This document shows, one piece after another, positions 7,993 through 46,000 of a stretch of DNA of 64,000 nucleotides. Origin of the DNA: Frondihabitans sp. 762G35 (GTDB taxonomy: Bacteria; Actinomycetota; Actinomycetes; Actinomycetales; Microbacteriaceae); NCBI RefSeq assembly GCF_002074055.1, contig NZ_CP014619.1, positions 3,009,002 through 3,073,001 on the forward strand, in the 5' to 3' direction. Under the pieces are notes generated by a model, which worked only from the letters and a program-made list of their open reading frames with translations, made no database searches and had not been told where the DNA came from. Numbering within the stretch: the first letter of the stretch is position 1; the number at the start of each line of letters is the position of its first letter. Made by a program: the position numbers and the translations under genes.

Positions 7993-8030
7993 ACGCAACA
8001 ACGCCGCCCTTTGGGGCGGCGTTGTTGCGT
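7993..8030. terminator. Strong hairpin terminator, convergent genes
   Basis: A 17-bp stem (ACGCAACAACGCCGCCC and its complement) with a TTTG loop, lying between the TIR gene and the leftward gene that ends at 8039. Symmetric, so it can end both transcripts. Confidence 0.85.
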
Positions 8031-8038
8031 TCGTCTAG

Positions 8039-30280: not shown

Positions 30281-30398
30281 GCTTCTTCCGGTTCTCGCGG
30301 ACGCAGCGGTCGACTGGTCGCCGAGCTGCACTGGTGGTGACGCGAGAGTGAACCTACGCCGATCCAGACAGGTTCGTCCGCGGGCGTTCCGCCATTTT

Positions 30399-30410
30399 TC
30401 CTATAGGATC
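30399..30410. promoter_or_regulatory. Candidate GntR operator, copy 1
   Basis: TCCTATAGGATC, with the perfect core palindrome TCCTATAGGA, in the 163-base gap between the divergent MFS and isomerase genes. It differs by one base from the element at 36130-36141 in front of the kinase operon. The cluster encodes a FadR-type GntR regulator, whose sites are usually short palindromes of this kind. Confidence 0.6.
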
Positions 30411-30443
30411 TATGTTCAGAGCACCCCGAGCCGATGGAGGATC

Positions 30444-31403
30444 GTGAGCCCGACGCCGAACGACCAGAACTGGGACCCCGCGACCTGGACGGCCGAGACC
30501 TGGCCGATCGCGACGTGCCTCCACGCCTTCCCGCCCGTCGACAGGCACGGCGTCGCCCTCCACGACGCCCCCGCGGAGGTCTGGGACGACATGTTCGCCC
30601 AGATCGAGTCGGTCGGATTCCGGCTGGCCGAGCTCGCGGACAGCCACGTGCGCCCGGCCGACCTCGAGCCGGGTCGACGCGACGAATTCCTCGACATCGC
30701 CCGGTCGCACGGGGTGGGCATCCCCTCCGTGCACCTCCAGAGGCGCAGCGTCATCATGCCGGGCAGAGAGGCGGAGAACCTCGAGTACGCCCACCGGACG
30801 ATCGACGGAGCCGCCGAGTGGGGGATGAAGGTCTTCTCGACGGGGCTGCATCAGCCCTTCAGCGACGCCCAGCGGCGCGCGCTCTGGTTCTGGACGGCGG
30901 AGGGCCCGAAGGACCCCGACGATCCCGACGTCTGGCAGCGGGCCGTCCGCTCCATGCGCGAGCTCGGGAAGCACGCGGCCGACGTGGGGCTGCCTCTGGC
31001 GCTGGAGATGTACGAGGACACCTACCTCGGCACGGCGGAGAGCGCCGTCCGGTTCGTCGAGGACGTGGGCCTCGACAACGTCGGCCTGAATCCGGACGTG
31101 GCGAACCTGATCCGGCTGCACCGACCGGTCGAGGACTGGCGCGACGTCTTCACCGCCACCCTGCCGTACGCGAACTACCTGCACGTGAAGAACTACTCGC
31201 GCGACGAGGCCGGCGACGGATCGTGGGCGACGTCCGCGCCGTCGACGATGGAGGCCGGCCTCATCAACTACCGGCAGGTCTTCCGGGAGGCCGTCGACGT
31301 CGGATTCCGCGGGATCATCCTCGCCGAGCAGTACGGCGGCGACAGCCTGGGCGTCTGCGCGACGAATCAGGCGTACATCCGAACGCTCTTGCCCCAGAAG
31401 TGA
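30444..31403 (+). CDS. Sugar isomerase/epimerase (AP endonuclease 2-like TIM barrel)
   Basis: A 319-residue xylose-isomerase-like TIM-barrel protein, GTG start with GGAGG four bases upstream. Metal-binding type segments: LPLALEMYEDTYLGTAESA (Glu), VGLNPDVANLIRLH (Asp), YLHVKNYSRDE (His) and IILAEQYGGDS (Glu). Such enzymes isomerise or epimerise keto and aldo sugars or sugar acids. Substrate unknown; the locus also carries a ketotetrose-type kinase and two isomerases, so a C4 substrate is plausible. Confidence 0.8.
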   Translation: MSPTPNDQNWDPATWTAETWPIATCLHAFPPVDRHGVALHDAPAEVWDDMFAQIESVGFRLAELADSHVRPADLEPGRRDEFLDIARSHGVGIPSVHLQRRSVIMPGREAENLEYAHRTIDGAAEWGMKVFSTGLHQPFSDAQRRALWFWTAEGPKDPDDPDVWQRAVRSMRELGKHAADVGLPLALEMYEDTYLGTAESAVRFVEDVGLDNVGLNPDVANLIRLHRPVEDWRDVFTATLPYANYLHVKNYSRDEAGDGSWATSAPSTMEAGLINYRQVFREAVDVGFRGIILAEQYGGDSLGVCATNQAYIRTLLPQK

Positions 31404-31425
31404 TCACGAGAAGGAGAACCCGACG

Positions 31426-32379
31426 ATGAGTTCCATGACAGCAGCCGTAGTCGGTTCCGGCTACATGGGGGGCGGGATCGCCCAGATGCTCGCCCTTTCG
31501 GGAGTGCCGGTGTCCCTCGCCGACGTGACGGCCGAGATCGCCGCCGCCAACCACGAACGCCTCCTCGAGGAGGCCCGCCAGTTCGTGGCCGACGGCCTCT
31601 TCCCGGCCGACGCGGTGGAGCGGATCCGGGCGCTCGTCACGCCGGCGGCGTCCGTGGAGGACGCCGTCGCCGGGGCCGACTTCATCGAGGAGGCCGTCCC
31701 GGAGAAGATCGAGATCAAGCACGCGACCCTCCGCAGGATCAGCGAGGCCGCTCGGCCGGACGCGGTCATCGGCTCGAACACGTCCACCATCCAGATCGGC
31801 GCACTGGCGACAGCGGTCGTCGGCCCCGAGCGCTTCCTCGGAGTTCACTTCTCCAACCCGGCGCCGTTCATCCCGGGTGTGGAGCTCATCCCCCACGCGA
31901 CCACCACGGCGGAGGCCGTCGATCTCGCCGAGAGCGTCGTGCGCGCGACGGGCAAGCAGACCGCCCGCATCTCGGACAGCGTCGGCTTCGTCCTCAACCG
32001 CCTGCAGTACGCCCTGTTCACCGAGGCGAGCGAGATCGTCGAGGAGGGGATCGCGACGGCGGAGGACGTCGACACCATCGTCCGCACCACCTTCGGCTTC
32101 CGCCTCCCGTTCTTCGGCCCGTTCGCGATCGCGGACATGGCCGGGCTCGACGTCTACGCGTTCTGCTACGAGTCGCTCCAGACCCGGTGGCCCGAGCGGT
32201 TCGCAACTCCCCGGTCGCTGGCCGACCACGTGGCGGCCGGACACCTCGGGACCAAGTCGGGTGCGGGCTATCTCGACGTCCCGGCCGAGCGCACCGCCGA
32301 GCTCGTCGCGTACCGCAACCGCGCCTACGTCGCCATGTCGAAGCTCCTCGACGAGCTCGGTCCCCCGCCTCTCGGCTGA
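31426..32379 (+). CDS. 3-hydroxyacyl-CoA dehydrogenase-family NAD(P)-dependent dehydrogenase
   Basis: A 317-residue protein: Rossmann motif AAVVGSGYMGGGIAQMLALS, then FIEEAVPEKIEIKHATLRRI and GSNTSTIQIGALA, FLGVHFSNPAPFIPGVELIP with the catalytic His, and the C-terminal helical domain GFVLNRLQYALFTEASEIVE. Relatives include L-gulonate 3-dehydrogenase and carnitine dehydrogenase as well as fatty-acid enzymes. In this setting it probably oxidises a C4 hydroxy acid or polyol rather than an acyl-CoA. Lies 22 bases after the isomerase with AGAAGGAGAA as ribosome-binding site. Confidence 0.85.
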   Translation: MSSMTAAVVGSGYMGGGIAQMLALSGVPVSLADVTAEIAAANHERLLEEARQFVADGLFPADAVERIRALVTPAASVEDAVAGADFIEEAVPEKIEIKHATLRRISEAARPDAVIGSNTSTIQIGALATAVVGPERFLGVHFSNPAPFIPGVELIPHATTTAEAVDLAESVVRATGKQTARISDSVGFVLNRLQYALFTEASEIVEEGIATAEDVDTIVRTTFGFRLPFFGPFAIADMAGLDVYAFCYESLQTRWPERFATPRSLADHVAAGHLGTKSGAGYLDVPAERTAELVAYRNRAYVAMSKLLDELGPPPLG

Positions 32380-32396
32380 GGGCAGGAGCCGCGGGC

Positions 32397-33110
32397 TCAG
32401 ACCTCCGAGTCGTGACGGGAGCGCTCCCGCACCCGTTCGATGTGATCGCGCATGGCCTGCCCGGCCGTCTGAGGTCCGACCGCGAACGCGCGCATGATGG
32501 CGCGATGCTCGGTGACGGCGTCGCCGGCGTCGGTGGCCCCGGTGTGGACCGTCTGCCGCATCCGGTGGACCCGGGTCGAGATCGAGTCGGACATGTCGAG
32601 GAGGAACGGGTTGCCCGTGCTCTCGAAGATGACGTGGTGGAAGTTCCAGTCGTCGGCGAAGTACTCGCGGATGAGCTCGAGGGGGAGCTCCCCCGTGCGT
32701 GCCGCCTCCTTGACCCGCTCGGCCGTCCGGGTGTGGCGTTCGAGGGCCTCCTCCAGGAGGGGGAGCAGCGAGTCGGCGTGACGGGCCGCGAGCTCCGCGG
32801 CTCCCCCCTCGAGCACCGCGCGGGCGTCGAAAAGGGCGTCCAGGTGCTCGGCGACGAGGGGCGGCGCCACCCGGTAGCCCTTGTTCGCGACGCGAGTGAC
32901 GAGGCCCGTCCGCTCCAGCTGGACGAGCGCTTCGCGGACCGGGGTCGGCGAGACTCCGAGTTCTCGCGCGACGGCGTCGATGGACAGCCGAGTGCCCGGC
33001 TCGACCGACGGGCCGAGCAGGACGTCGAGCACCCGGTCGTAGACGTGGTCGCGGAGGCCGCGCCGCTCGAGCGACTGGACGGCCGCGACGGGGAAGAGGG
33101 GGTCGGTCAT
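32397..33110 (-). CDS. GntR/FadR-type transcriptional regulator
   Basis: A 237-residue regulator: winged helix with AVARELGVSPTPVREALVQL and LVTRVANKGYRVAPP, then an all-helical FCD domain (FDARAVLEGGAAELAA, WNFHHVIFESTGNPFLLDM, VTEHRAIMRAF) carrying metal- or acid-binding His residues. FCD regulators commonly bind small organic acids. Last gene of the leftward kinase operon; its ATG overlaps the stop of the TPI-like gene. Probable target: the near-identical palindromes at 30399 and 36130. Confidence 0.9.
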   Translation of the reverse strand: MTDPLFPVAAVQSLERRGLRDHVYDRVLDVLLGPSVEPGTRLSIDAVARELGVSPTPVREALVQLERTGLVTRVANKGYRVAPPLVAEHLDALFDARAVLEGGAAELAARHADSLLPLLEEALERHTRTAERVKEAARTGELPLELIREYFADDWNFHHVIFESTGNPFLLDMSDSISTRVHRMRQTVHTGATDAGDAVTEHRAIMRAFAVGPQTAGQAMRDHIERVRERSRHDSEV

Positions 33111-33868
33111 GACAGCGACAGTTTAGGGACTTCGTCGAGGATGCTCCGGACGGCCTCCGGATCGTGAGCGAATCGCCCGAGGAAGAGCCCGTCGACGGCG
33201 TCGCCGACCTCCGTGAGGAGGCCCGGGCCCGCGCTGCCGCCGTAGAGGACGCGCGAGCCCTGGCGCCCGGGGAGGCCGCGGAGGTGGGCGCCGAGGGCGA
33301 GGCCGACGTCCCGGACGTGAGCCACGGGGGCCGCCGTCGGCTGCCCGATCGCCCACACCGGCTCGTAGGCGACGACGAGCGGCCCCGTCAGGCTGAGCCG
33401 ATCGGACCCCGCGAGCGCGGCGCCGAGTTGCTGCAAGCACTCGGCGACCGCCGCCTCGGCACCCCCCTGCTCGACCTCTCCGAGGCAGACGAGCGGGGTG
33501 AGGCCGTTGCGGAAGGCGGCCGCGACCTTCCGGCCGATCTGCTCGTCGGTCTCGGCGAAGAGTCTCCGGCGCTCCGCGTGCCCGATCTCCGCGAGGGTGC
33601 AGCCGAGCTCGGCCAGGACGCTGCCGCTGACCTCGCCGGTGAACGCACCGGCGTCGTCCGTGGCGATGTCTTGCGCTCCGACCCCGACCACGGGGGCGAG
33701 AATCTCCCGGGTGGCGGGGATGGACGGGAACGTGGGCAGGACGAAGAGTTCGGCCGCCCCGCTGGCGATCGCCTCGTGGTCGTCCGCGATCGCCCGGACC
33801 GCACGGCACCACTCGATCGTCTGCGCGTGGCCGAAGTACATCTTGAGGCTCACGCCGATGAGCGTCAT
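33107..33868 (-). CDS. Triose-phosphate-isomerase-like enzyme (ketotetrose phosphate isomerase candidate)
   Basis: A 253-residue TIM-family protein with all catalytic residues: Lys in GVSLKMYFGH, His in LAEIGHAERRR, and Glu in VVAYEPVWAIGQPT; the phosphate loop VLYGGSAGPG is present. Sequence differs from housekeeping TPI (SLKMYFG instead of NWKMN). In tetritol pathways of mycobacteria and Brucella, TPI-like enzymes (LerI/EryH) convert L-erythrulose 1-phosphate to D-erythrulose 4-phosphate, the role proposed here from context with RpiB and a DhaK-type kinase. Confidence 0.85.
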   Translation of the reverse strand: MTLIGVSLKMYFGHAQTIEWCRAVRAIADDHEAIASGAAELFVLPTFPSIPATREILAPVVGVGAQDIATDDAGAFTGEVSGSVLAELGCTLAEIGHAERRRLFAETDEQIGRKVAAAFRNGLTPLVCLGEVEQGGAEAAVAECLQQLGAALAGSDRLSLTGPLVVAYEPVWAIGQPTAAPVAHVRDVGLALGAHLRGLPGRQGSRVLYGGSAGPGLLTEVGDAVDGLFLGRFAHDPEAVRSILDEVPKLSLS

Positions 33869-33878
33869 GCCGGCCGAG

Positions 33879-34337
33879 TCATCGCGCCTCGTAGGCGTCG
33901 ATCTCCCGCACCTTGTCGTTCGAGGCGCTGGAGGCGTCGAACTCGTAGGTGAGCCACTCGCGCACGTTCCTCCGAGCGAGCTCCAGGCCGACGACGCGCT
34001 GCCCCTGGCAGAGGACCTGGGCGTCGTTCGACAGGACGCTGCGTTCGACGCTGTAGCTGTCGTGCGCGGTGACGGCCCGGACGCCGCGGACCTTGTTGGC
34101 GGCGATGGCGACACCGAGACCGGTCCCGCAGAACAGGATCGCGCGGTCGACCTCCCCGCTCGCGACGAGCTCCGCCGCCGCCGTCGCGACCGTCGGATAG
34201 TTGGTCCCGCCCGACGCGTCCACGCCCACGTCGACGACCGACACCACCCGCTCGCTGGTCTCGAGATCCCGCTTGACGGCCTCCTTGTAGTCGAAGCCCG
34301 CGTCATCGGAACCGATGGCCACTCTCCACGTCTTCAT
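33879..34337 (-). CDS. RpiB/LacA-family sugar-phosphate isomerase (D-erythrulose 4-phosphate isomerase candidate)
   Basis: A 152-residue RpiB-like protein: [20 protein letters not shown] (catalytic Asp region), [20 protein letters not shown] with the catalytic Cys, then [19 protein letters not shown]. In the erythritol and threitol pathways an RpiB homologue (DerI/EryI) makes D-erythrose 4-phosphate. Its ATG overlaps the kinase stop and it sits 10 bases before the TPI-like gene, so the three catabolic steps are translationally linked. Confidence 0.88.
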
Positions 34338-36091
34338 CGTTCTCCTGCCGCTTCGTCTTCCGGTCGGTGGTCGAGGTGCTCGGAGACGGCCCGGGCGATG
34401 GCCGCGAACGACACCGCGCCGGGATCCTGCGAGCCGACGGCCTTGTCGCCGTGCGTCCGCGCGCGCCCCAGCCGGGGAGTGAGGGCCGCCGTCGACTCCG
34501 CGCCGCGTGTAGCCGCTTCCGCCGCGATCCGCCACGCGGCGGCGACGTCGGAGCCCGAGTCGACCTCCGCGGCCAGAGCGTCGGCGAAGGGGACCAGGGC
34601 GTCGACCATGGTCTTGTCGCCCACGGCCGCCTTCCCGACGGTCATGACGGCCTCCCGCCCCCGCGAGACGCCCTCCGCGATCTGCGAGGCGAGCGGCGAG
34701 GCCGCGTCGGACAGCTCGCCGGCGAGGCTCCGGAGGAGGACTCCCCACAGCGCCCCCGACGTCCCGCCGGCGCGGTCGGCCCAGGCCTCGGCCGCGGCGG
34801 TGAGGACCGTGCGGGCCCCTGCTCCTGCGGTCGTGGCCGTCTCCGCCGCGGCGAGTGCCGCCCGGGCGCCGCGCTGCATACCGATCCCGTGGTCGCCGTC
34901 GCCGGCGATCGAGTCGAGGTGGCCCCATTCCACGGTGTCGCGATCGGCGGTGGCGACGATCGTCTCGAGGATCGAGGTGATTTGACGGGCCGCGTCGCGC
35001 GACTCGGGGGACGACTCCGGCACGACCTCCGGACCGGACGCCGTCGAATCGGGCGAGTCCACGAGGGCGGAGTCGTCGGCGACGGAGCCGCGGGTCAGGG
35101 CGGGGGTGTCGGCGGGCGCGGTCCAGAGGCGTTCGAGTTCGTCGTCGAGCCAGAGAAGGGTCAGGGAGGCACCCGCCATGTCGAAGCTGGTGCAGAACTC
35201 GCCCACCTGAGGGTCGACGATGGTGAGCCCCCGCTCCTCGAGGAGGGCCGCGACGCGGCGGTAGACGATGAAGAGCTCTTCGGTCTTGACGGACCCGAGA
35301 CCATTCAGGAGAGGCACGACTCGAGCACCGTCCAGATCGACACCGTCGGGGATCTCGGCCTCCGCGAGGAGCGTGTCGACGAACAGCGCCGCGAGGCCGT
35401 CGGCCGTGGGGATGTCCGTCTCGTCGATCCCCGGTTCGCCGTGGATCCCGAGCCCGACGGCCATGCGACCCTCCGGGACGGAGAAGAGCGGCTCGTCGGC
35501 GCCCGGCAGCGTGCAGCCGGTGAAGGCGACACCCATCGACCGGGTCCGGTCGTTGGCCGAGATCGCGACGCGCTCGACGTCGTCGAGGTCCAGCCCCTCG
35601 GCAGCGGCGGCGCCGGCCACCTTGAACACCGTCAGGTCGCCCGCGATGCCCCGGCGGCTGGAGCGCTCCTCGGGGCGAGCGCTGAAGACGTCGTCGGTGA
35701 CGAGGACGGTGCGGCACTCGATCCCGTCCGCGGCCACGGCCTCCTGCGCCGCGGTGAAGTTGAGGACGTCGCCCGCGTAGTTGCCGTAGCTGAGGAGGAC
35801 TCCTCCCCCGCGCTCGCTGGCGCGGATGACGGATTCGACCTGCACCGACGACGGCGACGAGAAGAGGTTGCCCATGGCCGCTCCGTGGGCGAGGCCCGGG
35901 CCGACGAGGCCTCCGAAGGCGGGGTAGTGGCCGGATCCGCCGCCGATCACCAGGGCGACGCCGGGCTCCGACGAGCGAGTCGCCCGCGTCACTCCCCCGC
36001 GGACCTGCTTGACGTAGGTGCGATTGGCGAGGACGAAACCCTCGATCATCTCGTCGACGAAATCGCCGGGTTCATTCCACAGTCGCGTCAC
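34334..36091 (-). CDS. Fused DhaK-DhaL kinase (erythrulose/dihydroxyacetone kinase)
   Basis: A 585-residue ATP-dependent kinase. DhaK domain, residues 1-330: [20 protein letters not shown] and [14 protein letters not shown], with the His that binds the keto substrate covalently. A linker of about 50 Ser/Asp-rich residues follows, then DhaL, about 385-575: [20 protein letters not shown] with the nucleotide-binding Asp residues and [15 protein letters not shown]. Single-chain forms phosphorylate dihydroxyacetone or, in tetritol loci, L-erythrulose. GTG start with GGAGGAG upstream is preferred over a TTG 12 codons earlier. First gene of the operon. Confidence 0.92.
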
Positions 36092-36129
36092 GTGTGCTCC
36101 TCCATTGGACCAGGTGTGAATGCGCAAGA

Positions 36130-36378: not shown

Positions 36379-36726
36379 TCAGAGCGCTTCGACGGCGCGG
36401 ATCCGCTCGACGGCACGGCGCTGCGCGATGGCGAGCATCCAGCTCAGGGCGTCGCCCCGACCGGCGTCGTAGCGAGGGGCGTGCCGCCAGAGCTCGAGGT
36501 ACGCCTCCTGGGCGACCTCCTCGGACTGCGCGGGGTCGCGGACGGAGCGCGTCACGAGGCCGAGCACGCGCGCGGCCGTCCGATCGTAGAGGGCGGCGAA
36601 GGCGCGGCGATCACCGCGTCCGGCCAGGGCGAGGAGATCGTCGACGGTGATGACCGTCGAGGATCCGGTGCCGCTGCCGGGTGAGGCGGAAGCGGTGCTG
36701 CCTGAAGAAGCTGCGCGAGAGGTCAT
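36379..36726 (-). CDS. Sigma-factor fragment containing only region 2
   Basis: A 115-residue protein: a Ser/Gly-rich N-terminus of about 30 residues, then sigma-70 region 2 (RRAFAALYDRTAARVLGLVT, SEEVAQEAYLELWRHAPRYD, ALSWMLAIAQRRAVERIR) as in SigK-type ECF factors. It stops where region 4 should begin, and no region 4 is seen in other frames downstream. So it is either a remnant or a product acting without region 4. It lies 84 bases after the second nitrilase-like gene, same strand, and may be the last gene of that operon. Confidence 0.75.
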   Translation of the reverse strand: MTSRAASSGSTASASPGSGTGSSTVITVDDLLALAGRGDRRAFAALYDRTAARVLGLVTRSVRDPAQSEEVAQEAYLELWRHAPRYDAGRGDALSWMLAIAQRRAVERIRAVEAL

Positions 36727-36810
36727 GCGTCCCTGGGTCGTCGACTGCACCGGAAGGGGCAGGGCCTCGAAATGGATCCGCGGGGGGAGAACCCCTCGCT
36801 TCCTCGGACC

Positions 36811-37692
36811 CTACGCACGCCCCGGGGATCGTGTCGCCCCCACAACGGGGGTGTCCGACCCGTATGCGGCCTCCACCCGGTCGCGGAGGTGGTTCATCGT
36901 GCGCCGGGCCCGTGCCACCCCCGCCTCCACGTCGACCGTCGCCTCGGCCAGGCCGCCCTTCGCCCAGGTCTTCGACACGATCTCGCCCGCCGGGTCGACG
37001 ATCTTCGCCTGACCCAGGAAGCGCAGCCCGCCCAGCACGCCGGTCTGGTTGGACGAGACGAGGTAGACCTGGTTCTCGGCCGCTCGGGCGCAGTCGTAGA
37101 GGTCGAACAGGTGGGCCTGGCGGTCGTTGCGGAGGCGGTCCGAGCGGTCGGTGATGCTCGCCGGCCACGCGCTCAGGCAGGCGAGGATGGTCGCGCCGTC
37201 CAGGGCCAGGGTGCGCGCCGACTCCGGGTAGGTCTTGTCGAAGTCGATCAGCATGCCCAGACGCCCAACGGGGGTGTCGAAGGCCGCGAAGGAGCGTCCG
37301 GCCCGGTAGACCTCCGACTCGCCGAGGGGCAGGTGCACCTTGCGGTGGGTGCCGAGGACGCCGCCGCCCTGCACGCACACGGCCGTGTTGTAGTGGACCT
37401 CGGCGCCGCCCTCGAGCGCGCGCTCGGCGACGCCGAAGCAGACCACCATGTCGCCGGCCAGCTCGGCGACCGCCTGGATCTCGGGGCCGTCCAGCTCGAC
37501 GGCCGGGGGGAGCTCGCCGGTACCCGGATGCACGAGGTCGGAGAGGTAGCCGCCGAGCGTCGCATCCGGCAGGACGAAGAGGTCGGTGCCGCGATCGCGC
37601 GCCTGCTCGATCATGCCGGAGAGCTTGACCAGGGTCCTGTCGATGTCGCGGCCGAAGTGCGCGGCCACGGCGCCCATCGTGATCGATCCCAT
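36811..37692 (-). CDS. Nitrilase-fold protein lacking catalytic Cys and Glu
   Basis: A 293-residue carbon-nitrogen hydrolase homologue, clearly related to the Nit6803-type nitrilase at 41822-42727 (shared DTPVGRxGM, YPE/FPE-AARxLALDGA, SNQxG, NHLRDR-like end). The catalytic Glu of LPEAAIGGYL is Asp here (FVLPDATLGGYL, D43), the Lys is kept (HRKVHLPLGE, K118), and the nucleophile Cys of QICYDK is Asp (LIDFDK, D150). Chemistry through a thiol is therefore impossible; a regulatory, structural or binding role is inferred. The ATG with AAGGTGA upstream is preferred over a GTG three codons earlier. Confidence 0.88.
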   Translation of the reverse strand: MGSITMGAVAAHFGRDIDRTLVKLSGMIEQARDRGTDLFVLPDATLGGYLSDLVHPGTGELPPAVELDGPEIQAVAELAGDMVVCFGVAERALEGGAEVHYNTAVCVQGGGVLGTHRKVHLPLGESEVYRAGRSFAAFDTPVGRLGMLIDFDKTYPESARTLALDGATILACLSAWPASITDRSDRLRNDRQAHLFDLYDCARAAENQVYLVSSNQTGVLGGLRFLGQAKIVDPAGEIVSKTWAKGGLAEATVDVEAGVARARRTMNHLRDRVEAAYGSDTPVVGATRSPGRA

Positions 37693-37702
37693 GGCGGTCA
37701 CC

Positions 37703-39160
37703 TTAGCCGGAGGCGCGGAAGCGCCCGGCCTCCACGAGGGCGCGGAACGTACGACGGCTCGTCTTGCCCGCGTCGCTGCGAACGGGCTCCCGCGTGAGGT
37801 GGACGGCGGCGGGTCGACGCTCCCGGTCGATCCGCTCCTGCACCCAGGCCAGGAGCTCCGCCGCCTCGACGTCCGACTCGGCCACGTCGGCGACCACCTC
37901 GATCCGCTGCCCGAGGTCGTCGTCGGCGATCCCGACCGCGACGGCGGACCGCACGGCCGGGTGCTCCTCCATCACGCGCTCGACCTCGACCGGGTGGACG
38001 GTCACGCCGCCGCGATTGATGGTGTCGTCGGCGCGATCCTCGACGTGGAGGTAGCCGTCGGCGTCGACGTGACCGAGGTCGCCCAGGGTGTCCCAGCCGT
38101 CGTCGGTGCGTCGCCCCGCGGCTCCGACGTAGCGGTAAGTGGGCCCGCCCTCGCGGTGCATCCAGATGGTCCCCGATTCCCCCGTGGCGACCGGCTGCCC
38201 CGACGGCGAGCGGATCGACAGCGTCGTGCCGCCGATCGGGCGGCCGACGCTCCCGGGGTGCGCCGCCCACTCGTCCCCGCGCATCATGACGAGCCCGTTC
38301 GACTCGCTCCCCGCGTAGACCTCGACGAGGGTCGACGCGCCGACCCAGTCGGCGAAGGCCCGCTTCACCGACGGCGCGCACGGGGCACCCAGGTGCAGCA
38401 CCGTCCCCAGCGACGACAGGTCGGCGCCGGCCCGTTCGGCCTCCGGCAGCCGGAGGAGACGACTCATCATCGTCGGCACGAGGAGCGCCCACGTCACCCG
38501 GTGCTCGGCGATCGCCCGGAGCACGCGCCTCTCCTCGAACCGCGGCAGGATCACGAGGGTCGCCCCGGTCATCAGCGCCCGGAACGAGTAGGTGAACGTC
38601 GCGGAGTGGACCAGCGGCCCGGAGACGAGGTGGACGCCGCCGACGGGGAGGAACTCGGCGACCGGGCGCGACGGATCCTGCAGCGCCGGGGCCGTCGCCA
38701 GGACGATCTTCGGCGGCCCCGTGCTGCCGGAGGAGGTGGGCGCCTTCCACGACGCGGCCCAGGCGTCCGCGAGCGGACCGTCCGACAGCGCAGGATCGGG
38801 CGCGAAGCCGGGCGGGATGCAAGGGCCCGCGACCTCGAAGCCGACGACCAGGGCAGGGCGGGCCAGCTCGACCAGCGCCTCCCGCTCGCGCGTGTCGAGG
38901 CCGGTCGAGACCGGCTGCGGCGTCGCCCCCAGCTTCCAGATCGCGCACACCGCGACGACGAGCTCGACGGAGTTGGGCAGGGAGACCGTCACGAGGTCGT
39001 CCCGACCGACGCCGAGGGCCGCGTAGGCGCGGGCGAGCCGGTTCGAGCGGAGGTCGAGGTCGCGGGCCGTCAACCGGGTGTCGTCGTCGATCGCGACGAC
39101 GCGGGCCGGATCCTGCTCAGCCAGCGAGGTGATGATCCGCGAGATCGAGAGCCTGGCCAT
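37703..39160 (-). CDS. AMP-forming acyl-CoA synthetase/ligase family protein
   Basis: A 485-residue adenylate-forming enzyme: P-loop TSSGSTGPPKIVLATA, then EVYAGSESNGLVMM, GWDTLGDLGHVDADGYLHVE and the C-terminal AGKTSRRTFRALV with the catalytic Lys. It would activate a carboxylic acid as acyl-AMP and pass it to CoA or an amine. Overlaps the glycosyltransferase gene by 44 bases and is followed 10 bases later by the inactive nitrilase paralogue, so it belongs to the Nit1C leftward operon. Substrate unknown; a nitrilase-derived acid is one option. Confidence 0.85.
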   Translation of the reverse strand: MARLSISRIITSLAEQDPARVVAIDDDTRLTARDLDLRSNRLARAYAALGVGRDDLVTVSLPNSVELVVAVCAIWKLGATPQPVSTGLDTREREALVELARPALVVGFEVAGPCIPPGFAPDPALSDGPLADAWAASWKAPTSSGSTGPPKIVLATAPALQDPSRPVAEFLPVGGVHLVSGPLVHSATFTYSFRALMTGATLVILPRFEERRVLRAIAEHRVTWALLVPTMMSRLLRLPEAERAGADLSSLGTVLHLGAPCAPSVKRAFADWVGASTLVEVYAGSESNGLVMMRGDEWAAHPGSVGRPIGGTTLSIRSPSGQPVATGESGTIWMHREGGPTYRYVGAAGRRTDDGWDTLGDLGHVDADGYLHVEDRADDTINRGGVTVHPVEVERVMEEHPAVRSAVAVGIADDDLGQRIEVVADVAESDVEAAELLAWVQERIDRERRPAAVHLTREPVRSDAGKTSRRTFRALVEAGRFRASG

Positions 39161-40220
39161 GGTCGCCTCCCCCGGCGAGCCGTCGGTAGAAGCTCTCGTG
39201 TCGGGACGCGACGTCGTCCCAGTCGTGCGAGCGGGCGAGCCGCATCCCGAGGGCGGGAGCAGGGGCGTCACCTGACAGGACCCGCTCCAGGGCGGCGGTG
39301 ATCGCCGGCACGTCGGCGGCGTAGGTCACCGCGTCGCCGAAGACCTCGCGGAGGACGGGGAGGTCCCGCGCCACGACCGGCACGCCGGCGGCGAGCGCCT
39401 CCATGGCGGCCAGCCCGAAGCCCTCCTTCGTCGACACGAACGCGAGCGCCGAGGCTCCGGCGACGAGCGGGGCGACGTCCGCCTCGTCGAGGACGCCGAG
39501 GATCTCGACGGGTAGGCCCAGCTCGGCGAGGCGCCGGTCGAACGCCTCGCGGTAGGGGCGGTAGTCGAAGAGGGTCTCGCCGCCGCCGAAGACCAGTCGC
39601 GCGCCGGAGACCCCGGCCATCGCCTCCAGCAGGTCGAGACTGCCCTTCCGCGGCTCGATGCCGCCCAGCGCAAGGACGTAGGGGCCGAACCGCTCCCGGA
39701 AGGGCGAGCCGTCGGCCTCCGCGAAGCGCGCGGCGTCGACCCCGTTCGGGATGACCGTCGGCACGAGGCCCCAGCCCGCCTCGACCTCGGCGGCGACCGC
39801 CGCGGAGACGCAGAGGCGGGCGATCGGCTCCCGGATCGCGCGGTCGTGGCAGGCCACGAGCTCGGGGGTCGTGAACTCGTCGAGGTGGTGGATGGTCCGG
39901 ATGCAGCGGCCGACCGCGTTCGCCGAGATGCAGTCCTGCGCGTGCACGACGTCGTGGTCGTCGGGCTCGAAGGCGTCCCGCATCGTCTCGATGGACCGCC
40001 GGATGCGCGCACCGACGTCCTCGCCCGTCCGCTCGGGGAACGGCACGACCCGGATCGACACCGCGGGGTCGACGTCGCGGAAGAACACGTCGTCGCCGCC
40101 GCGCCCGAGCGTCCACACGGTGACCTCGTGTCCGCGGCGAGCGAGCGCCTCGGCGAGGGCCAACGTGTGGACGACGCCGCCGCGGGGCTTCGTGGAGTAG
40201 GTCACCTGAGCGATGCGCAT
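39117..40220 (-). CDS. MSMEG_0565-family glycosyltransferase (GT4 type)
   Basis: A 367-residue GT-B fold protein. MRIAQVTYSTKPRGGVVHTL begins the N-terminal Rossmann domain; VIPNGVDAARF and GGIEPRKGSLDLLEAM open the C-terminal domain; STKEGFGLAAMEALAAG holds the E-x7-E motif of retaining GT4 enzymes. Family members of this type sit beside MSMEG_0569-0572 genes in mycobacteria. It would transfer an NDP-sugar to an unknown acceptor. Eight bases after the flavoprotein gene. Confidence 0.85.
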   Translation of the reverse strand: MRIAQVTYSTKPRGGVVHTLALAEALARRGHEVTVWTLGRGGDDVFFRDVDPAVSIRVVPFPERTGEDVGARIRRSIETMRDAFEPDDHDVVHAQDCISANAVGRCIRTIHHLDEFTTPELVACHDRAIREPIARLCVSAAVAAEVEAGWGLVPTVIPNGVDAARFAEADGSPFRERFGPYVLALGGIEPRKGSLDLLEAMAGVSGARLVFGGGETLFDYRPYREAFDRRLAELGLPVEILGVLDEADVAPLVAGASALAFVSTKEGFGLAAMEALAAGVPVVARDLPVLREVFGDAVTYAADVPAITAALERVLSGDAPAPALGMRLARSHDWDDVASRHESFYRRLAGGGDHGQALDLADHHLAG

Positions 40221-40228
40221 GCCCTCAG

Positions 40229-41542
40229 TCAACCCGAGACGGGCTCGCGCTCGAACAGGGCGGGCGCCTCGTGCGTCAGGATGCGCGACGCCAGGTGCTC
40301 GGCGTCGCGCGCGACGGCGGCGAACCGGCCCGAGCCCCAGGTGTGGAGCCACGGCAGTCCGAGGAAGTAGAGGCCCGGCGCCGACGTCACCCCGCGACGA
40401 TGGGTCGGGTGCCCGGCGCCGTCGAAGACGCCGACCTGGATCCACTCGTAGTCGGAGCGGAAGCCGACCGCCCAGACGATGCTCGCGATGCCTGCCGCGT
40501 CGAGGTCGAGCGCCTCGACCTCCCGCTCCGGCCGCCAGACCGGCGAGTAGCGGGCCTCGGTGGGCGCGTCGATCCCGGCCCGCTCGATGTACTCGTCGAT
40601 GTTGGTCTTGATCGACTCCATGACGGAGTCGGCGTGGTCGAGCGAGGCCTCCGCCGTCGGCGTGAAGCCGAGGGCGGTGCCCTCGACCGTCGTCATCCGG
40701 CCGTAGAGAGCCATGCCGTCCCTGGCGAACGCGCGGAGGTCGATGTCGCGGCCGCCGTCGCGCCCCGTCATGTAGTGGTTCGTCGACTCCCGCTTCGTGA
40801 GCCCGCCGACCTGCGCCTCGACGGGGATGTCGTAGACGCCCATCTCGTCGAGCCAGTCGATGCAGTCGCGCCCGCGGTAGAAACGGGCGCACCGGGGCGC
40901 GGAGCCGAGGGCGAGGTGGACCCGCTTGCCGGCGAGGAAGAGGTCCTCGGCGATCTGCGCGCCGGACTGCCCGGAGCCGACGACGAGCACGCCGCCCTCG
41001 GGGAGCGCCTCGGGCGAGCGGTAGTCGGCCGAGTGCACCTGCACGATGTGGGGGGCGACGCGGCCGGCCGCGGCGGGCAGGACCGGGCGGTGGTAGCCGC
41101 CGGTCGCGACGACCACCTGGTCGGCGGTCAGGGTGCCCTGGTCGGTGACCACCTCGTATCCTGCCCGCCCCTCGCGCAGCCGGGTCACGAGGACCCCCTC
41201 GACGACGGGCGCCGCGAAGCTCCGGGCGTAGCGCCGGATCCAGGCGTGCACCTCGTCGCGCTTCATGAAGCCCGTCGGATCGTCGCCGTCGTAGGGGTAG
41301 CCGGGCAGCCGGCACTGCCAGTTGGGGGTCACCAGGGTGAAGGCGTTCCAGCGCCGATCGATCCAGTCGTGGGCGATCGTGTCGCGCTCGAGCACGACGT
41401 GGTCGGTGCCCGCGCGGGTCAGGTGCCAGCTCAGCGAGAGGCCGGCCTGGCCGCCGCCGATGATCGCGACGTCGACGTGGGAGCCGTCGACCACGCGGCG
41501 GCGGGGTGCGCCTTCGGTGTCGGTGCGGGCGTCCGGGATCAT
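40229..41542 (-). CDS. MSMEG_0569-family flavin-dependent oxidoreductase
   Basis: A 437-residue flavoprotein monooxygenase-like enzyme: FAD motif DVAIIGGGQAGLSLSWHL, NADPH motif VVGSGQSGAQIAEDLFLA and the C-terminal FLGLPWLHTWGSGRFAAVAR. It corresponds to NitH of the Nit1C cluster. Predicted to oxidise or hydroxylate the pathway intermediate with NADPH and O2. Its ATG overlaps the MSMEG_0570 stop by four bases. Confidence 0.9.
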   Translation of the reverse strand: MIPDARTDTEGAPRRRVVDGSHVDVAIIGGGQAGLSLSWHLTRAGTDHVVLERDTIAHDWIDRRWNAFTLVTPNWQCRLPGYPYDGDDPTGFMKRDEVHAWIRRYARSFAAPVVEGVLVTRLREGRAGYEVVTDQGTLTADQVVVATGGYHRPVLPAAAGRVAPHIVQVHSADYRSPEALPEGGVLVVGSGQSGAQIAEDLFLAGKRVHLALGSAPRCARFYRGRDCIDWLDEMGVYDIPVEAQVGGLTKRESTNHYMTGRDGGRDIDLRAFARDGMALYGRMTTVEGTALGFTPTAEASLDHADSVMESIKTNIDEYIERAGIDAPTEARYSPVWRPEREVEALDLDAAGIASIVWAVGFRSDYEWIQVGVFDGAGHPTHRRGVTSAPGLYFLGLPWLHTWGSGRFAAVARDAEHLASRILTHEAPALFEREPVSG

Positions 41543-41829
41543 GCGGGGAGCCCTGGTTCCATCCGGAGGATCTCCACCGATCCGACCGCGAAGGCCGAGG
41601 CGGCGGAGCGGATCTCGTCGGCCTGCGCGAGAGCCGAGGTGCAGGCGAAGCCGTAGCGCTCGGCGACGCGGACGCTGGCGACCCCGAGCGCCTCCGTCGA
41701 GCGCGAGACGAACTCGTCGACCGGATAGACGCCGCCGGTCGTCAGGTAGTCGTGCATCACGAGGCTCGGCGAGTAGCACGACGCCTCAGTGCCGTCGGGC
41801 CAGCGCACCAGGAAGGTCATCTCAGGCAT
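41539..41829 (-). CDS. MSMEG_0570-family nitrogen starvation response protein
   Basis: A 96-residue protein (MTFLVRWPDGTEASCYSPSL, then YPVDEFVSRSTEALGVASVR and RYGFACTSALAQADEI). It corresponds to NitG, a small protein of unknown function always found beside this nitrilase. The ATG at 41829 has AGGAG eight bases upstream and overlaps the nitrilase stop by eight bases; a second ATG three codons later is possible. Confidence 0.9.
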   Translation of the reverse strand: MPEMTFLVRWPDGTEASCYSPSLVMHDYLTTGGVYPVDEFVSRSTEALGVASVRVAERYGFACTSALAQADEIRSAASAFAVGSVEILRMEPGLPA

Positions 41830-42727
41830 GAGCAAGCTCCTCCTCGACCTCGAGGCGGGTCGAGCGGGCCTCGAACTCGCCGGTGCGGTACGCATCCGGC
41901 CGTCGATCGCGCAGGTGGTACATCCCGCCCCGCATGGCCGCGAAGGTCCCTTCGACGTCGATCTCGGCGACGGCCATGCCGGAGTCGAGGAGCGTCGTCG
42001 CGAGGATGTTCCCGCCCGGGTCGACCACCTTGGCGTTGCCGACGTAGCGGAGCGAGCCGAAGGTGCCGGCCTGGTTCGACGCCAGCCAGAACACCTGGTT
42101 GTCGAGGGCTCGGGAGACGTCGAAGAGGTTGAAGCGGTAGGTCCAGCGGTCGTCCTGGAGGTTCTCCGCGGTCGCGGTCCGCGCGGCGGGCCACGCGGAC
42201 ATGCTGACGATGATCTCGGCCCCGTCGAGGGCGAGCGACCTGGCCGCCTCCGGGAACGCCTTGTCGTAGCAGATCTGCATCCCCACGCGGCCGACGGGGG
42301 TGTCGAACGCCTCGTAGACGTCCCCGGCCGAGTAGGACATGTTCTCGCCGAGGGGCTGGTGGACCTTCCGGTAGGAGCCGTAGATCCGCGAGCCGTCGAG
42401 ACACACCGCGGCGTTGTACCGGGTCGCGCCGTCGTCGGCCAGCTCGCAGAAGCCGATGCACACGACCAGGTCGCCCACCAGCTCCTGCAGCCGCCGGATC
42501 TCGGGACCGTCGAGCGAGATGGCCGGTGGGAGCGAGCGGGTCGTGTTCTTGATCGTGTCGCCGTGGTTGCCGAGCGACGAGAGGTAGCCGCCGATCGCGG
42601 CCTCGGGGAGGACGAGGAACTGCACGCCCCGGCCGCGCGCCTCGGCGACGAGCTCGGCGATCAGGTCGTAGTTCTGGTCGAGGTCTCGCGTGAAGTTCGC
42701 GGAGACGGCGGCGACGGTGATGGCCAT
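41822..42727 (-). CDS. nitC: Nit6803-family nitrilase (NitC of Nit1C)
   Basis: A 301-residue carbon-nitrogen hydrolase with an intact triad: E42 in FLVLPEAAIGGYLSSLG, K121 in GSYRKVHQPLGE and C153 in GMQICYDKAFPEAARSLA. Nit6803-type enzymes hydrolyse nitriles to acid and ammonia. The Nit1C cluster is linked to growth on cyanide as nitrogen source in pseudomonads and to nitrogen starvation in Synechocystis. First gene of the leftward operon, 72 bases from a GlnR-type box. Confidence 0.94.
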   Translation of the reverse strand: MAITVAAVSANFTRDLDQNYDLIAELVAEARGRGVQFLVLPEAAIGGYLSSLGNHGDTIKNTTRSLPPAISLDGPEIRRLQELVGDLVVCIGFCELADDGATRYNAAVCLDGSRIYGSYRKVHQPLGENMSYSAGDVYEAFDTPVGRVGMQICYDKAFPEAARSLALDGAEIIVSMSAWPAARTATAENLQDDRWTYRFNLFDVSRALDNQVFWLASNQAGTFGSLRYVGNAKVVDPGGNILATTLLDSGMAVAEIDVEGTFAAMRGGMYHLRDRRPDAYRTGEFEARSTRLEVEEELAHA

Positions 42728-43491: not shown

Positions 43492-44565
43492 ATGACGATC
43501 ACGAACGGCGGGGCCCTCTCGACCCGGGTCGACATCGCGATCCGCGGGATCCGGGTGGCGGCTCCGGTGCACCGGGAGGGCGGGGCGGGGCCGAGCGACG
43601 ACGGCCACGTCCTGTTCCAGGGCATGCAGTCGGCGATCCCCGTCGACCAGAACAGTCCGTACCTCGTCGACGACGGGAAGCTCCTGCTCGACGGCGAGGA
43701 CACCGGCCTCGAGGTGTCGCCGGTCGACCGGCCCCGCTTCTACGACCTGGCCACTGCCGACGGCGTCTCCTACGAGAAGATCGCGCGGCTCCACGGCGCC
43801 AAGGTGCTGGCGACCACGGTCGTCCAGACCTGCATCCGGTACGACCCCGCTGAACGGTGCCGCTTCTGCTCGATCGAGGAGTCGCTGCGCTCGGGAGCCA
43901 CCGTCGCGGTCAAGACACCCACGATGATCGCCGAGGTCGCGGAGGCCGCCTGGCGCCTCGACGGCGTCGAGCAGATGGTCATGACCACGGGGACGTCCAA
44001 CGGACGGGATCGGGGCGCCACCCACCTCGCCCGGTGCGTCCGCGCCGTCAAGCGGGCGGTGCCGGACCTCATGATCCAGGTGCAGTGCGAACCGCCCGCC
44101 GACCTCCGCACCATCACGGACCTGTACGAGGCGGGCGCCCGCTCGATCGGCATCCACGTCGAGTCGATGGACGACCGCGTCCGGCGCCGCTGGATGCCGG
44201 GTAAGTCCCGGGTCCCGCTCGATGAGTACCGGGCCGCCTGGCGCGAGGCCGTGCGCGTCTTCGGACGCAACCAGGTGTCGACCTACCTGCTCGTCGGGCT
44301 GGGCGAGGACCCCGACGAGATGGTCGACTCCGCCCGCGAGCTGATCGAGATGGGCGTCTACCCGTTCGTCGTGCCGTTCCGCCCGCTCCAGGGGACGCTC
44401 GCGACCGACGTGGACGGCGCCACCGCCCCCGGGCGGTCCGTGCTGCACGACATCACGGTGCGCGTCTCGGAAGCGCTCGTCGCCGCCGGCATGCGCGGCT
44501 CCGACCAGAAGGCAGGATGCGCGGCCTGCGGCGCCTGCTCCGCTCTCCAGACGGCCGGGGGCTGA
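43492..44565 (+). CDS. nitD: MSMEG_0568-family radical SAM enzyme
   Basis: A 357-residue protein. The Fe-S motif is C114-x8-C123-x2-C126 (TCIRYDPAERCRFCS), not the canonical C-x3-C-x2-C; nearby segments (VEQMVMTTGTSNGRDRGATH, IQVQCEPPADLRTITDLYEA) fit a radical SAM barrel. The C-terminus has three more Cys (CAACGAC), possibly a second cluster. It corresponds to NitD. Expected to carry out a radical rearrangement or C-N/C-C chemistry on the pathway substrate. Lies 13 bases after the MSMEG_0572 gene and 1 base before the next gene. Confidence 0.93.
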   Translation: MTITNGGALSTRVDIAIRGIRVAAPVHREGGAGPSDDGHVLFQGMQSAIPVDQNSPYLVDDGKLLLDGEDTGLEVSPVDRPRFYDLATADGVSYEKIARLHGAKVLATTVVQTCIRYDPAERCRFCSIEESLRSGATVAVKTPTMIAEVAEAAWRLDGVEQMVMTTGTSNGRDRGATHLARCVRAVKRAVPDLMIQVQCEPPADLRTITDLYEAGARSIGIHVESMDDRVRRRWMPGKSRVPLDEYRAAWREAVRVFGRNQVSTYLLVGLGEDPDEMVDSARELIEMGVYPFVVPFRPLQGTLATDVDGATAPGRSVLHDITVRVSEALVAAGMRGSDQKAGCAACGACSALQTAGG

Positions 44566-44566
44566 C

Positions 44567-46000
44567 GTGACCCTGATCGACGTGCCGGCGCTCATGGGGC
44601 AGGCACCCGCCCGCCCGGCCCCCGCCCTCGAGTTCCTGGTCGTGCGGGCCGACGCCGCCGACGTCGCGGCCTATCGCCGCCTCCGGCACGACGCCTTCGT
44701 CGACGAGCAGGGCCTCTTCGCGGGCACCGACCGCGATGGGCTGGACGACGATCCGCGCACCGTGGTGCTCGTCGCCCGGGCATCCGGCGGGACCGTCGTC
44801 GGGGGCGTGCGGATCGCTCCCGCGACCCCGCGGGACATCGGCTGGTGGACCGGCAGCCGACTCGTCGTCGCCCCCTCCGCCCGGAGCGCGGCCGGCATCG
44901 GGTCGGCCCTGGTCAGCGCCGCCAGCGCCCTCGCGGAGCAGCTCGGCGTGATCCGGTTCGACGCGACGGTGCAGACGCGGTCGTCGGTCCTGTTCCGGCG
45001 CCTCGGCTGGCAGGAGACGGGGTCCACCGTCGTCGGAGGCGTCGACCACCTCACCATGCGCTGGCCGATCGACCGCTACCAGCGCCTCGTCGACGCAACC
45101 AAGGCGCACCTCGCGGTGCTCCTCGAACCGCACTCGGCCTGTGGCGACGCGGCCGACGCGTCGCTCGGCGGCCCCGGCTGGGTCGGCGACGACGGGGCTC
45201 CCGTACCCGGGACGGACGTCATCGCCGCGTGCGACGCGATCCTGCCCTCCATGGTCGAGCGCGACCCGGAGTGGGCCGGCTGGTGCGGCGTGCTCGTCAA
45301 CGTCAACGACCTCACCGCCATGGGCGCCACGGCCACCGGACTCCTCGACGCCGTCGCGGGTCGCGACGCGGCGTTCGTGCGCCGCGTGATGTCGGGTCTC
45401 CGGAAGGCGTCCGCCGCCTGGGGCATCCCGATCCTCGGCGGCCACACGCAGGTCGGAGTCCCCGCGTCGCTCACGGTCACCGCCCTCGGGCGCACGTCGC
45501 ACCCCGTCCCCGGCGGCGGCGGACGCTTCGGCGATCGGCTCTCGCTCACCGCGGACCTCGCGGGCGACTGGCGCGTCGGACACCACGGCTCCCAGTGGAA
45601 CTCCACCGAGATCCGCCGATCCTCCGAGCTGCAGGAGCTCGCGGCCACCGTCGCGAGAGCCCGCCCCGCCGCCGCCAAGGACGTCAGCATGGCCGGCCTC
45701 GTCGGTACGGCCGGGATGCTCGCCGAGGCCAGCGGCTACGGCGCGGTGATCGACGTCGACGCGGTCCCGGCTCCGGCGTCGGCGGCCCTGGGCGACTGGC
45801 TCTCCTGCTTCCCCGGCTTCGCGATGCTCACCGCGGACCGTCCCGGGCGGTCGCGCATGGCGTCGGAGCTGGCGGCCACGGCCGAGATGGGGTCTCTGAC
45901 CCTGGAGCGGGGCGTCCGCCTGCGGTGGCCCGACGGCGTCGAGACGGCGGCCGTCGAGGGGACCGTGACCGGGCTCGGGGTGGCGGGGGTCGCGCGCTAG
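44567..46000 (+). CDS. MSMEG_0567/Sll0786-family fused GNAT acetyltransferase and AIR synthase-like protein
   Basis: A 477-residue two-domain protein starting at GTG. Residues 20-165 form a GNAT N-acyltransferase (YRRLRHDAFVDEQGLFAGTD, then SARSAAGIGSALVSAASALA with the acetyl-CoA loop). Residues 170-470 resemble AIR synthase/PurM-type ATP-binding proteins (AILPSMVERDPEWAGWCGVL, GILGGHTQ-like segment WGIPILGGHTQVG, KDVSMAGLVGTAGMLAEASG). In other hosts these are separate genes nitE and nitF; here one chain. Suggests acyl transfer coupled to ATP-driven activation of the same intermediate. Confidence 0.92.
   Translation: MTLIDVPALMGQAPARPAPALEFLVVRADAADVAAYRRLRHDAFVDEQGLFAGTDRDGLDDDPRTVVLVARASGGTVVGGVRIAPATPRDIGWWTGSRLVVAPSARSAAGIGSALVSAASALAEQLGVIRFDATVQTRSSVLFRRLGWQETGSTVVGGVDHLTMRWPIDRYQRLVDATKAHLAVLLEPHSACGDAADASLGGPGWVGDDGAPVPGTDVIAACDAILPSMVERDPEWAGWCGVLVNVNDLTAMGATATGLLDAVAGRDAAFVRRVMSGLRKASAAWGIPILGGHTQVGVPASLTVTALGRTSHPVPGGGGRFGDRLSLTADLAGDWRVGHHGSQWNSTEIRRSSELQELAATVARARPAAAKDVSMAGLVGTAGMLAEASGYGAVIDVDAVPAPASAALGDWLSCFPGFAMLTADRPGRSRMASELAATAEMGSLTLERGVRLRWPDGVETAAVEGTVTGLGVAGVAR

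What the first reader, a model, noticed from the sequence alone, without database searches (positions are those of the whole stretch)
36811..37692. A nitrilase paralogue with both catalytic Cys and Glu replaced by Asp
Aligned by eye with the intact nitrilase 4 kb away: E42 becomes D, C153 becomes D, K121 is kept, and the surrounding fold motifs are well preserved over the full length with no frameshift. An enzyme that lost only function would be expected to decay more widely; clean double substitution in an intact frame suggests a pseudoenzyme, for example a partner subunit in the nitrilase spiral filament or a binding or sensor protein.
Basis: partly seen in the sequence, partly recalled or inferred. 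Interest (0 to 1): 0.7.

Follow-up and report, generated by a model that had tools for sequence, protein, structure and literature searches.

The report
Conserved dead nitrilase beside active one
Many actinobacteria carry, next to a working nitrile-type hydrolase, an old and carefully preserved twin whose cutting residue has been swapped for an aspartate, so a protein now annotated as an enzyme probably acts as a partner or binding protein instead.

Summary
The gene is on the minus strand (ATG 37692 to stop 36811, 293 aa): an intact nitrilase-fold protein (PF00795; AF2 pLDDT 91) with Asp at the Glu site (D43) and at the Cys site (D150); K118 and E125 are kept. The paralogue 4.1 kb away is E-K-E-C. 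It is not a strain mutant. Of 202 distinct sequences, 104 have Asp at the Cys site; all 104 keep the Lys and none has Glu at the Glu site (90 Asp, 7 Gly, 6 His, 1 Gln). The other 98 are E-K-E-C, with no intermediates. Representatives show one origin (99/93), and selection is as strong as on the active paralogue. The gene belongs to the actinobacterial Nit1C (MSMEG_0565-0572, 'gpr') cluster; 70 of 71 genomes with it also carry the active nitrilase. By synteny it is MSMEG_0566, annotated 'aliphatic amidase'. The strongest conservation has moved to helix 191-207. Best reading: an ancient pseudo-nitrilase acting as a non-catalytic partner of the active enzyme. The partner role is inferred; a ligand-binding role or new Asp chemistry is not excluded.

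The parts
36811..37692 (-). pseudo-nitrilase, 293 aa, D43-K118-E125-D150 in place of E-K-E-C
37703..39160 (-). AMP-binding acyl-CoA ligase-like protein, directly upstream of the pseudo-nitrilase; start approximate
   Evidence: its stop lies 10 nt before the pseudo-nitrilase ATG
39117..40217 (-). MSMEG_0565 family glycosyltransferase (TIGR04047, above cut-off); start approximate
40229..41539 (-). MSMEG_0569 family flavin-dependent oxidoreductase (TIGR04046, above cut-off); start approximate
41539..41829 (-). MSMEG_0570 family protein (TIGR04042, above cut-off), overlapping the end of the active nitrilase gene
41822..42727 (-). active-type nitrilase paralogue, E42-K121-E128-C153, 301 aa
42948..43478 (+). 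MSMEG_0572/Sll0783 family protein (TIGR04044, above cut-off); start approximate
43492..44565 (+). MSMEG_0568 family radical SAM protein (TIGR04043, above cut-off)
44567..46000 (+). MSMEG_0567 family GNAT-AIR synthase-like fusion (TIGR04045 and TIGR04050, above cut-offs)

Best explanation
The gene encodes an ancient, selected pseudo-nitrilase that arose once by duplication of the actinobacterial Nit1C nitrilase and can no longer use the Glu-Lys-Cys mechanism. Shown: intact frame and predicted fold, replacement of the nucleophilic Cys by Asp and loss of the catalytic Glu in every group member read, a single origin of the representatives, purifying selection equal to that on the active paralogue, and near-obligate genomic association with that paralogue. 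Inferred: it works as a non-catalytic partner subunit. It would pair with the active nitrilase, probably across the face that carries helix 191-207, and tune or complete that enzyme's active site. Asp150 would be held by Lys118, and perhaps Arg183, as a fixed ion pair that keeps the emptied pocket folded.
For: Cys site Asp and no Glu at its site in 104 of 104 group members; 98 of 98 other sequences are E-K-E-C, with no intermediates (Asp codons GAC 102 and GAT 2). One origin, 99/93, for 36 representatives (72 rows in all) with the four catalytic columns masked. NG86 median dN/dS 0.30 against 0.32 over 2025 pairs from 65 loci, mean pN 0.196 against 0.193. Column entropy 1.10 against 1.24 bits. 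Of positions 1-281, those at 90% or more in the active clade and under 15% here are only E42, C153, F223, D274 and one gap column. Class sample of 394 genomes: both genes 32, dead only 1, active only 16, neither 345. One genus: both 20, neither 128. Rhodococcoides trifolii keeps both although they lie on different contigs. Four Rhodococcus plasmids carry both, D-K-E-D and E-K-E-C. The two genes are directly adjacent in genomes of six family codes. The dead-active partial distance correlation, 0.60, is the highest of 15 gene pairs. The most conserved 17-residue windows in this group lie at helix 191-207 (0.28-0.29 bits, against 0.98 for 191-207 in the active clade); in the active clade they lie around the Cys. 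AF2 pLDDT 91.2, pTM 0.90; Z 35.0 to 6ypa. [quoted passage not shown]
Against: No experiment and no complex model was possible. 16 of 48 class-sample genomes with the active nitrilase lack the partner, so the active enzyme does not always need it (residues not read for 3 of the 16). One genome, G420, has the dead gene without the cluster nearby or an active gene, beside an aldose 1-epimerase. In genera g10 and g15 of family code f6 the active gene resembles the window's (75-83% identity) while the dead gene does so less (57-64%), so partners were probably exchanged. Asp150, Lys118 and almost always Glu125 are kept, which a mere scaffold would not need. The mirror-tree value uses non-independent distances of two homologous proteins. 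In the 21 closest pairs the dead gene's dN/dS is the higher one in 11. That helix 191-207 lies at the dimer face is recalled, not computed.
Confidence: 0.5

Rival explanations
1. It is a ligand-binding or sensor protein. The old pocket still binds the nitrile, amide or product made by the cluster, held by Asp150, Lys118 and Glu125, and reports it to other cluster proteins or a regulator without catalysis.
For: Catalytic-site motifs stay as conserved as in the active clade (E site 0.51 against 0.51 bits, K site 0.65 against 0.84, C site 0.30 against 0.37). Lys118 is 104 of 104 and Asp150 104 of 104. A new Arg183 appears in 103 of 104. The gene lies next to the glycosyltransferase gene in most clusters read. 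One standalone copy exists (G420).
Against: Pfam finds only the CN_hydrolase domain, no DNA-binding or signalling domain; regulators near the cluster were not examined systematically. The strongest conservation is in helix 191-207 rather than at the catalytic motifs.
Confidence: 0.22
2. It is an enzyme with new chemistry. Asp150 takes over as nucleophile or general acid/base, with Lys118 and Glu125, on a different substrate.
For: Asp at the nucleophile site is absolutely conserved although Cys to Asp needs two base changes; Lys118 is kept in 104 of 104 and Glu125 in 103 of 104. Other group-specific residues could serve a new site: T154, R183, Q228 and K245 are each 90% or more here and under 15% in the active clade.
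Against: The general-base Glu site has no fixed substitute: Asp, Gly, His or Gln. Whether the group-specific residues lie near the site was not measured, as no coordinates were available.
Confidence: 0.18
3. It is a scaffold or chaperone for other Nit1C enzymes (glycosyltransferase, flavoprotein) rather than for the nitrilase.
For: The dead gene is next to the MSMEG_0565 glycosyltransferase gene in most clusters read, and the dead-GT partial distance correlation is 0.29.
Against: Active-only clusters read still have the glycosyltransferase (for example L149-L153), and the dead-active partial correlation is twice as high.
Confidence: 0.08
4. It is a decaying or strain-specific inactive copy.
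For: Loss of catalytic residues alone.
Against: Conserved across 104 distinct sequences of many families with purifying selection equal to that on the active copy.
Confidence: 0.01

Closest known systems
Actinobacterial Nit1C nitrilase (the E-K-E-C paralogue in the same cluster; by synteny MSMEG_0571)
   Same: 48% identity over 266 columns, same cluster, same kind of predicted fold
   Different: Keeps Glu and Cys; conservation peaks at the Cys rather than at helix 191-207
Pyrococcus horikoshii amidase / PH0642 (6ypa, 1j31)
   Same: Best structural match, Z 35.0, rmsd 1.7 over 255 residues
   Different: Natural enzyme has Glu-Lys-Cys (recalled); the C146A entry is an engineered variant
Heteromeric plant NIT4A/NIT4B nitrilase complexes of grasses
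   Same: Precedent for two paralogous nitrilase-fold subunits working as a complex (PMC6214922 and PMC5154151, passages)
   Different: Branch-1 plant nitrilases; no Cys-to-Asp subunit is described in the passages read
Nit6803/NitC nitrilase of Nit1C (TIGR04048; cyanide assimilation in Pseudomonas)
   Same: The same cluster type (PMC1199592 and PMC11049912, passages)
   Different: Scores 24.5 bits against a cut-off of 502.6; the window's active paralogue scores only 37.9
Prozyme-type dead paralogue partners (trypanosome AdoMetDC prozyme)
   Same: Dead paralogue heterodimerising with the active enzyme (PMC6221367, abstract start in the listing)
   Different: Unrelated protein family; partnership reported there, inferred here

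Membership tests
Nitrilase (carbon-nitrogen hydrolase) superfamily, by descent and fold | CN_hydrolase domain and nitrilase fold | tested here: met
   PF00795 at 122.7 bits, cut-off 23.2; Z 35.0 to 6ypa
Nitrilase superfamily enzyme, by mechanism | catalytic Glu-Lys-Cys (plus second Glu) | tested here: not met
   D-K-E-D here; Cys replaced by Asp and Glu absent in 104 of 104 of the group
Nit6803/NitC nitrilase (TIGR04048) | score above the curated cut-off of 502.6 | tested here: not met
   24.5 bits
Aliphatic amidase (annotation of MSMEG_0566) | score above the curated cut-off of NF009802 (427) | tested here: not met
   window protein 24.1 bits; the MSMEG_0566 sequence itself was not seen here, it is equated by synteny only
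Nit1C / MSMEG_0565-0572 cluster component | neighbours TIGR04042, 04043, 04044, 04045/04050, 04046, 04047 above cut-off | tested here: met
   conserved in related loci; RefSeq names on Rhodococcus plasmids agree
Nit1C as first defined | a subfamily-1 nitrilase in a conserved seven-gene cluster | tested here: not met
   two paralogues that do not reach the Nit6803 cut-off, one of them dead; definition from PMC1199592 passages
Pseudoenzyme | catalytic motif lost but gene conserved under selection | tested here: met
Pseudoenzyme | no catalytic activity | not testable with these tools
   needs purified protein
Heteromeric nitrilase subunit | physical complex with the active paralogue | not testable with these tools

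The most novel reading that the evidence does not exclude
The Cys-to-Asp change created a working site rather than destroying one: Asp150 with Lys118 and Glu125 performs a new, non-thiol reaction in the nitrilase fold on a metabolite of the Nit1C pathway, so this group would be a new catalytic class of the superfamily.
Probability: 0.17. Interest if true: 0.85.

Novelty: new variant of a known kind. Interest (0 to 1): 0.6.

Why it matters
A protein that the M. smegmatis literature lists as a putative aliphatic amidase that could contribute to nitrogen assimilation (MSMEG_0566, equated here by synteny) would not be a conventional hydrolase. The Nit1C cluster was described in 2005 without a function; I saw cyanide assimilation reported for Pseudomonas and nitrogen starvation and peroxide resistance for M. 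smegmatis, but no settled biochemical role in actinobacteria. A second, catalytically disarmed nitrilase that nearly always travels with the active one is a strong handle on it, and a natural test of how a nitrilase-fold enzyme is reused as a partner or receptor. I found no published description of a pseudo-nitrilase group in the searches made (open-licence PMC only, two listings capped at 20).

Tried and rejected
Strain-specific mutant or pseudogene: rejected. Convergent or repeated loss: rejected by the one-origin tree with catalytic columns masked. Nit6803 membership of either paralogue: rejected. Search bias: one of the six peptide patterns contained the Asp, so I repeated the search by profile over whole genomes, where E-K-E-C paralogues were also recovered; among the genes read, none that groups with this gene had Cys. 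Those searches scored at most six candidates per genome. An all-or-none role in the cluster: rejected, since 16 of 48 active-type genomes of the class sample lack it. In 6 of the 54 radical-SAM-positive class-sample genomes neither gene was matched, and only 2 of those 6 gave a TIGR04048 match, below its cut-off (of 14 control genomes only Synechococcus elongatus matched either family). Paper searches for nitrilase pseudoenzymes: searches returned 0 papers, one search returned 2; two searches found 30 and 92 but listed 20 each; one search listed 7. Nothing relevant was seen in those listings. dN/dS by NG86 is saturated for distant pairs; in the 21 pairs with dead-gene dS below 0.40 the ratios are 0.03-0.35 (dead) and 0.02-0.32 (active).

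Full report
What is there. The reported interval holds a 293-aa frame on the minus strand (ATG 37692, stop 36811), starting 10 nt after the stop of the preceding ligase gene. It matches Pfam CN_hydrolase at 122.7 bits and no NCBIfam model above its cut-off. Its paralogue at 41822-42727 is 48% identical over 266 columns. The paralogue has E42-K121-E128-C153; the reported gene has D43-K118-E125-D150. HMMER alignment to the P. horikoshii amidase entry 6ypa (a C146A variant) puts D150 on the Ala and D43 on the Glu. AlphaFold2 gives an intact nitrilase fold (pLDDT 91.2, pTM 0.90), with Z 35.0 and 1.7 A over 255 residues to 6ypa.

Conservation. A scan of 84,980 species genomes gave 55 loci: 54 of 55 are D-K-E-D, and the remaining one (L059, Solirubrobacterales, 51% identity) is E-K-E-C. 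Profile searches of 396 (phylum), 394 (class) and 396 (order) genomes widened the sample. From 237 reading frames, 202 distinct proteins remained after dropping 35 that were short (under 240 aa), identical or contained. Of these, 104 carry Asp at the Cys site (89 D-K-E-D, 7 G-K-E-D, 6 H-K-E-D, 1 Q-K-E-D, 1 D-K-D-D) and 98 are E-K-E-C; nothing lies in between. Asp at the Cys site is thus the defining feature, with GAC in 102 and GAT in 2. The Glu is always lost, but its replacement is free to vary. Later loci agree: L166-L242 gave 52 D-K-E-D, 6 G-K-E-D, 6 H-K-E-D and 53 E-K-E-C, some of them second copies of genes already counted, and four Rhodococcus plasmids gave 4 D-K-E-D and 4 E-K-E-C.

Origin and selection. 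For the tree the 202 proteins were thinned at 80% identity to 72 rows, 36 of them with Asp. With the four catalytic columns masked, the 36 Asp rows lie on one side of a single branch (99/93; one change in 98% of 200 bootstrap trees). The group spans another class of the phylum (G375, D-K-D-D). Over 2025 pairs from 65 loci that hold both genes, NG86 median dN/dS is 0.30 for the dead and 0.32 for the active gene; the dead gene's ratio is the higher one in 983 of 2025; mean pN is 0.196 and 0.193. NG86 saturates in these genomes; in the 21 pairs with dead-gene dS below 0.40 the ratios are 0.03-0.35 (dead) and 0.02-0.32 (active), the dead one higher in 11 of 21. Mean column entropy is 1.10 bits for the dead and 1.24 for the active clade. 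Of positions 1-281, only the catalytic Glu, the catalytic Cys, F223, D274 and one gap column are at 90% or more in the active clade and under 15% here. The change is surgical, not general decay.

Where the constraint went. In the active clade the most conserved 17-residue windows surround the catalytic Cys; in the dead group they lie at helix 191-207 (0.28-0.29 bits; 0.98 for 191-207 in the active clade). Gln192, Leu195, Phe196, Asp197, Leu198, Tyr199, Asp200, Arg203, Ala204, Ala205, Glu206, Asn207 and Gln208 are each 104 of 104. AF2 makes 191-207 one helix, preceded by a lower-confidence block at 181-190 that carries the group-specific Arg183 (103 of 104). That this helix lies on the face used for dimerisation in the superfamily is recalled; PMC6214922 (passages) says only that most members share one dimer interface.

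Cluster and co-occurrence. The gene belongs to the actinobacterial form of Nit1C: TIGR04042, 04043, 04044, 04045/04050, 04046 and 04047 all score above cut-off around it. Of the 54 D-K-E-D loci, 50 show the active gene in the same locus, 3 are cut by contig ends (L025, L046, L054), and L058 has it on another contig. In the class sample (394 genomes) the counts are: both 32, dead only 1 (G420), active only 16, neither 345 (Fisher p 6e-34, genomes not independent). All 33 dead genes of that sample were read; of the 16 active-only genomes, 13 were read and G502, G516 and G706 were judged by score only. 48 of 54 genomes with the cluster's radical SAM protein have the active nitrilase, and 32 have the dead one. 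In the order sample 17 of 396 genomes have both and 2 have the active one only. In the phylum sample 5 of 396 have both, and 4 more have E-K-E-C genes only. In genus g10, that of G075, 20 of 148 have both and 128 neither (20 of 20 dead genes read as D-K-E-D). In the window's own genus 4 of 7 have both and 3 neither. Together that is 71 distinct genomes with the dead gene, and 70 of them also have the active one; not every active copy was read, some were judged by score, and in G1121, G566 and G583 the active match is partial. Of 72,556 plasmid records, 4 (all Rhodococcus) carry the gene, each with an E-K-E-C copy in the same cluster; on the 3 annotated ones both are named 'carbon-nitrogen hydrolase family protein'.

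MSMEG_0566. The loci L139, L232, L234 and L237 have the order 572-active-570-FMO-rSAM-GNAT-AIRS-dead-GT, which matches MSMEG_0572 down to 0565. L233 and L235 add a ligase gene, and in L138 and L236 no 570 match was seen. These come from genera g10 and g15 of family code f6, which I take to be mycobacteria from this order and their genome sizes; no call names them. [quoted passage not shown] The M. smegmatis sequence itself was not examined. The cluster is induced by nitrogen starvation there (PMC4222082 and PMC6039565, passages).

Mechanism. The loss of both nucleophile and base makes the usual thiol chemistry impossible (inference from the established mechanism of the superfamily). The partner-subunit model rests on co-occurrence, on direct adjacency of the two genes in six family codes (f5, f90, f94, f95, f114, f123), on the highest partial distance correlation of all 15 pairs of six cluster genes (dead-active 0.60, next 0.34; 92 loci), on conservation concentrated in helix 191-207, and on the grass NIT4 heterocomplex precedent. 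Against it: in g10 and g15 the active genes are 75-83% identical to the window's while their dead partners are 57-64%, so partners have probably been exchanged; a third of active-type genomes in the class sample have no partner; and one genome, G420, keeps the dead gene alone beside an aldose 1-epimerase. The invariant Asp150-Lys118 pair keeps a ligand-binding or new-chemistry reading open.

Literature. Eight searches in the open-licence library gave no description of a nitrilase pseudoenzyme group; of most listed papers I saw only the listing. Nit1C papers were read in passages only.

Organism. The window's genus is probably Frondihabitans: contigs of two same-genus genomes have the same lengths (817,794 and 2,271,794) as contigs titled Frondihabitans sp. 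PhB188 and Leaf304.

Noticed in passing
L147 (G420), 7366-9334: The only group member found without an active paralogue or Nit1C genes nearby; an aldose 1-epimerase frame starts right after it.
   Followed up: partly
window 41815-41835: The active nitrilase stop (TGA) overlaps the start of the MSMEG_0570-type gene (ATG CCT GAG ATG). The same overlap is seen in 15 of 18 loci, 12 of 14 genomes, of genera g10 and g15. It gives an ordinary reason for the UGA that PMC6039565 proposed as a selenocysteine codon of MSMEG_0571.
   Followed up: partly
L243-L246: The whole cluster with both nitrilases lies on large Rhodococcus plasmids, 3 of 4 typed as mobilizable, with transposase genes within a few kb on the 3 annotated ones; this fits its patchy spread.
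   Followed up: partly
window 37703-39160: An AMP-binding ligase gene is a frequent extra member of the cluster in Microbacteriaceae and relatives, absent from the MSMEG_0565-0572 set.
   Followed up: partly
L137 8701-10362, L149 7018-8616: Some clusters have a different FAD-binding protein where the MSMEG_0569-type flavoprotein usually sits.
   Followed up: partly
window 36379-36750: ECF sigma factor frame of only 123 aa with region 2 alone (best NCBIfam match SigK, profile positions 13-103 of 194); it may be truncated or frameshifted.
   Followed up: no
window 30258-36127: Sugar catabolism genes (sugar-phosphate isomerase/epimerase, dehydrogenase, GntR regulator, triosephosphate isomerase, RpiB, dihydroxyacetone kinase), read by eye as a sugar-alcohol type pathway; names recalled, no search made.
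   Followed up: no
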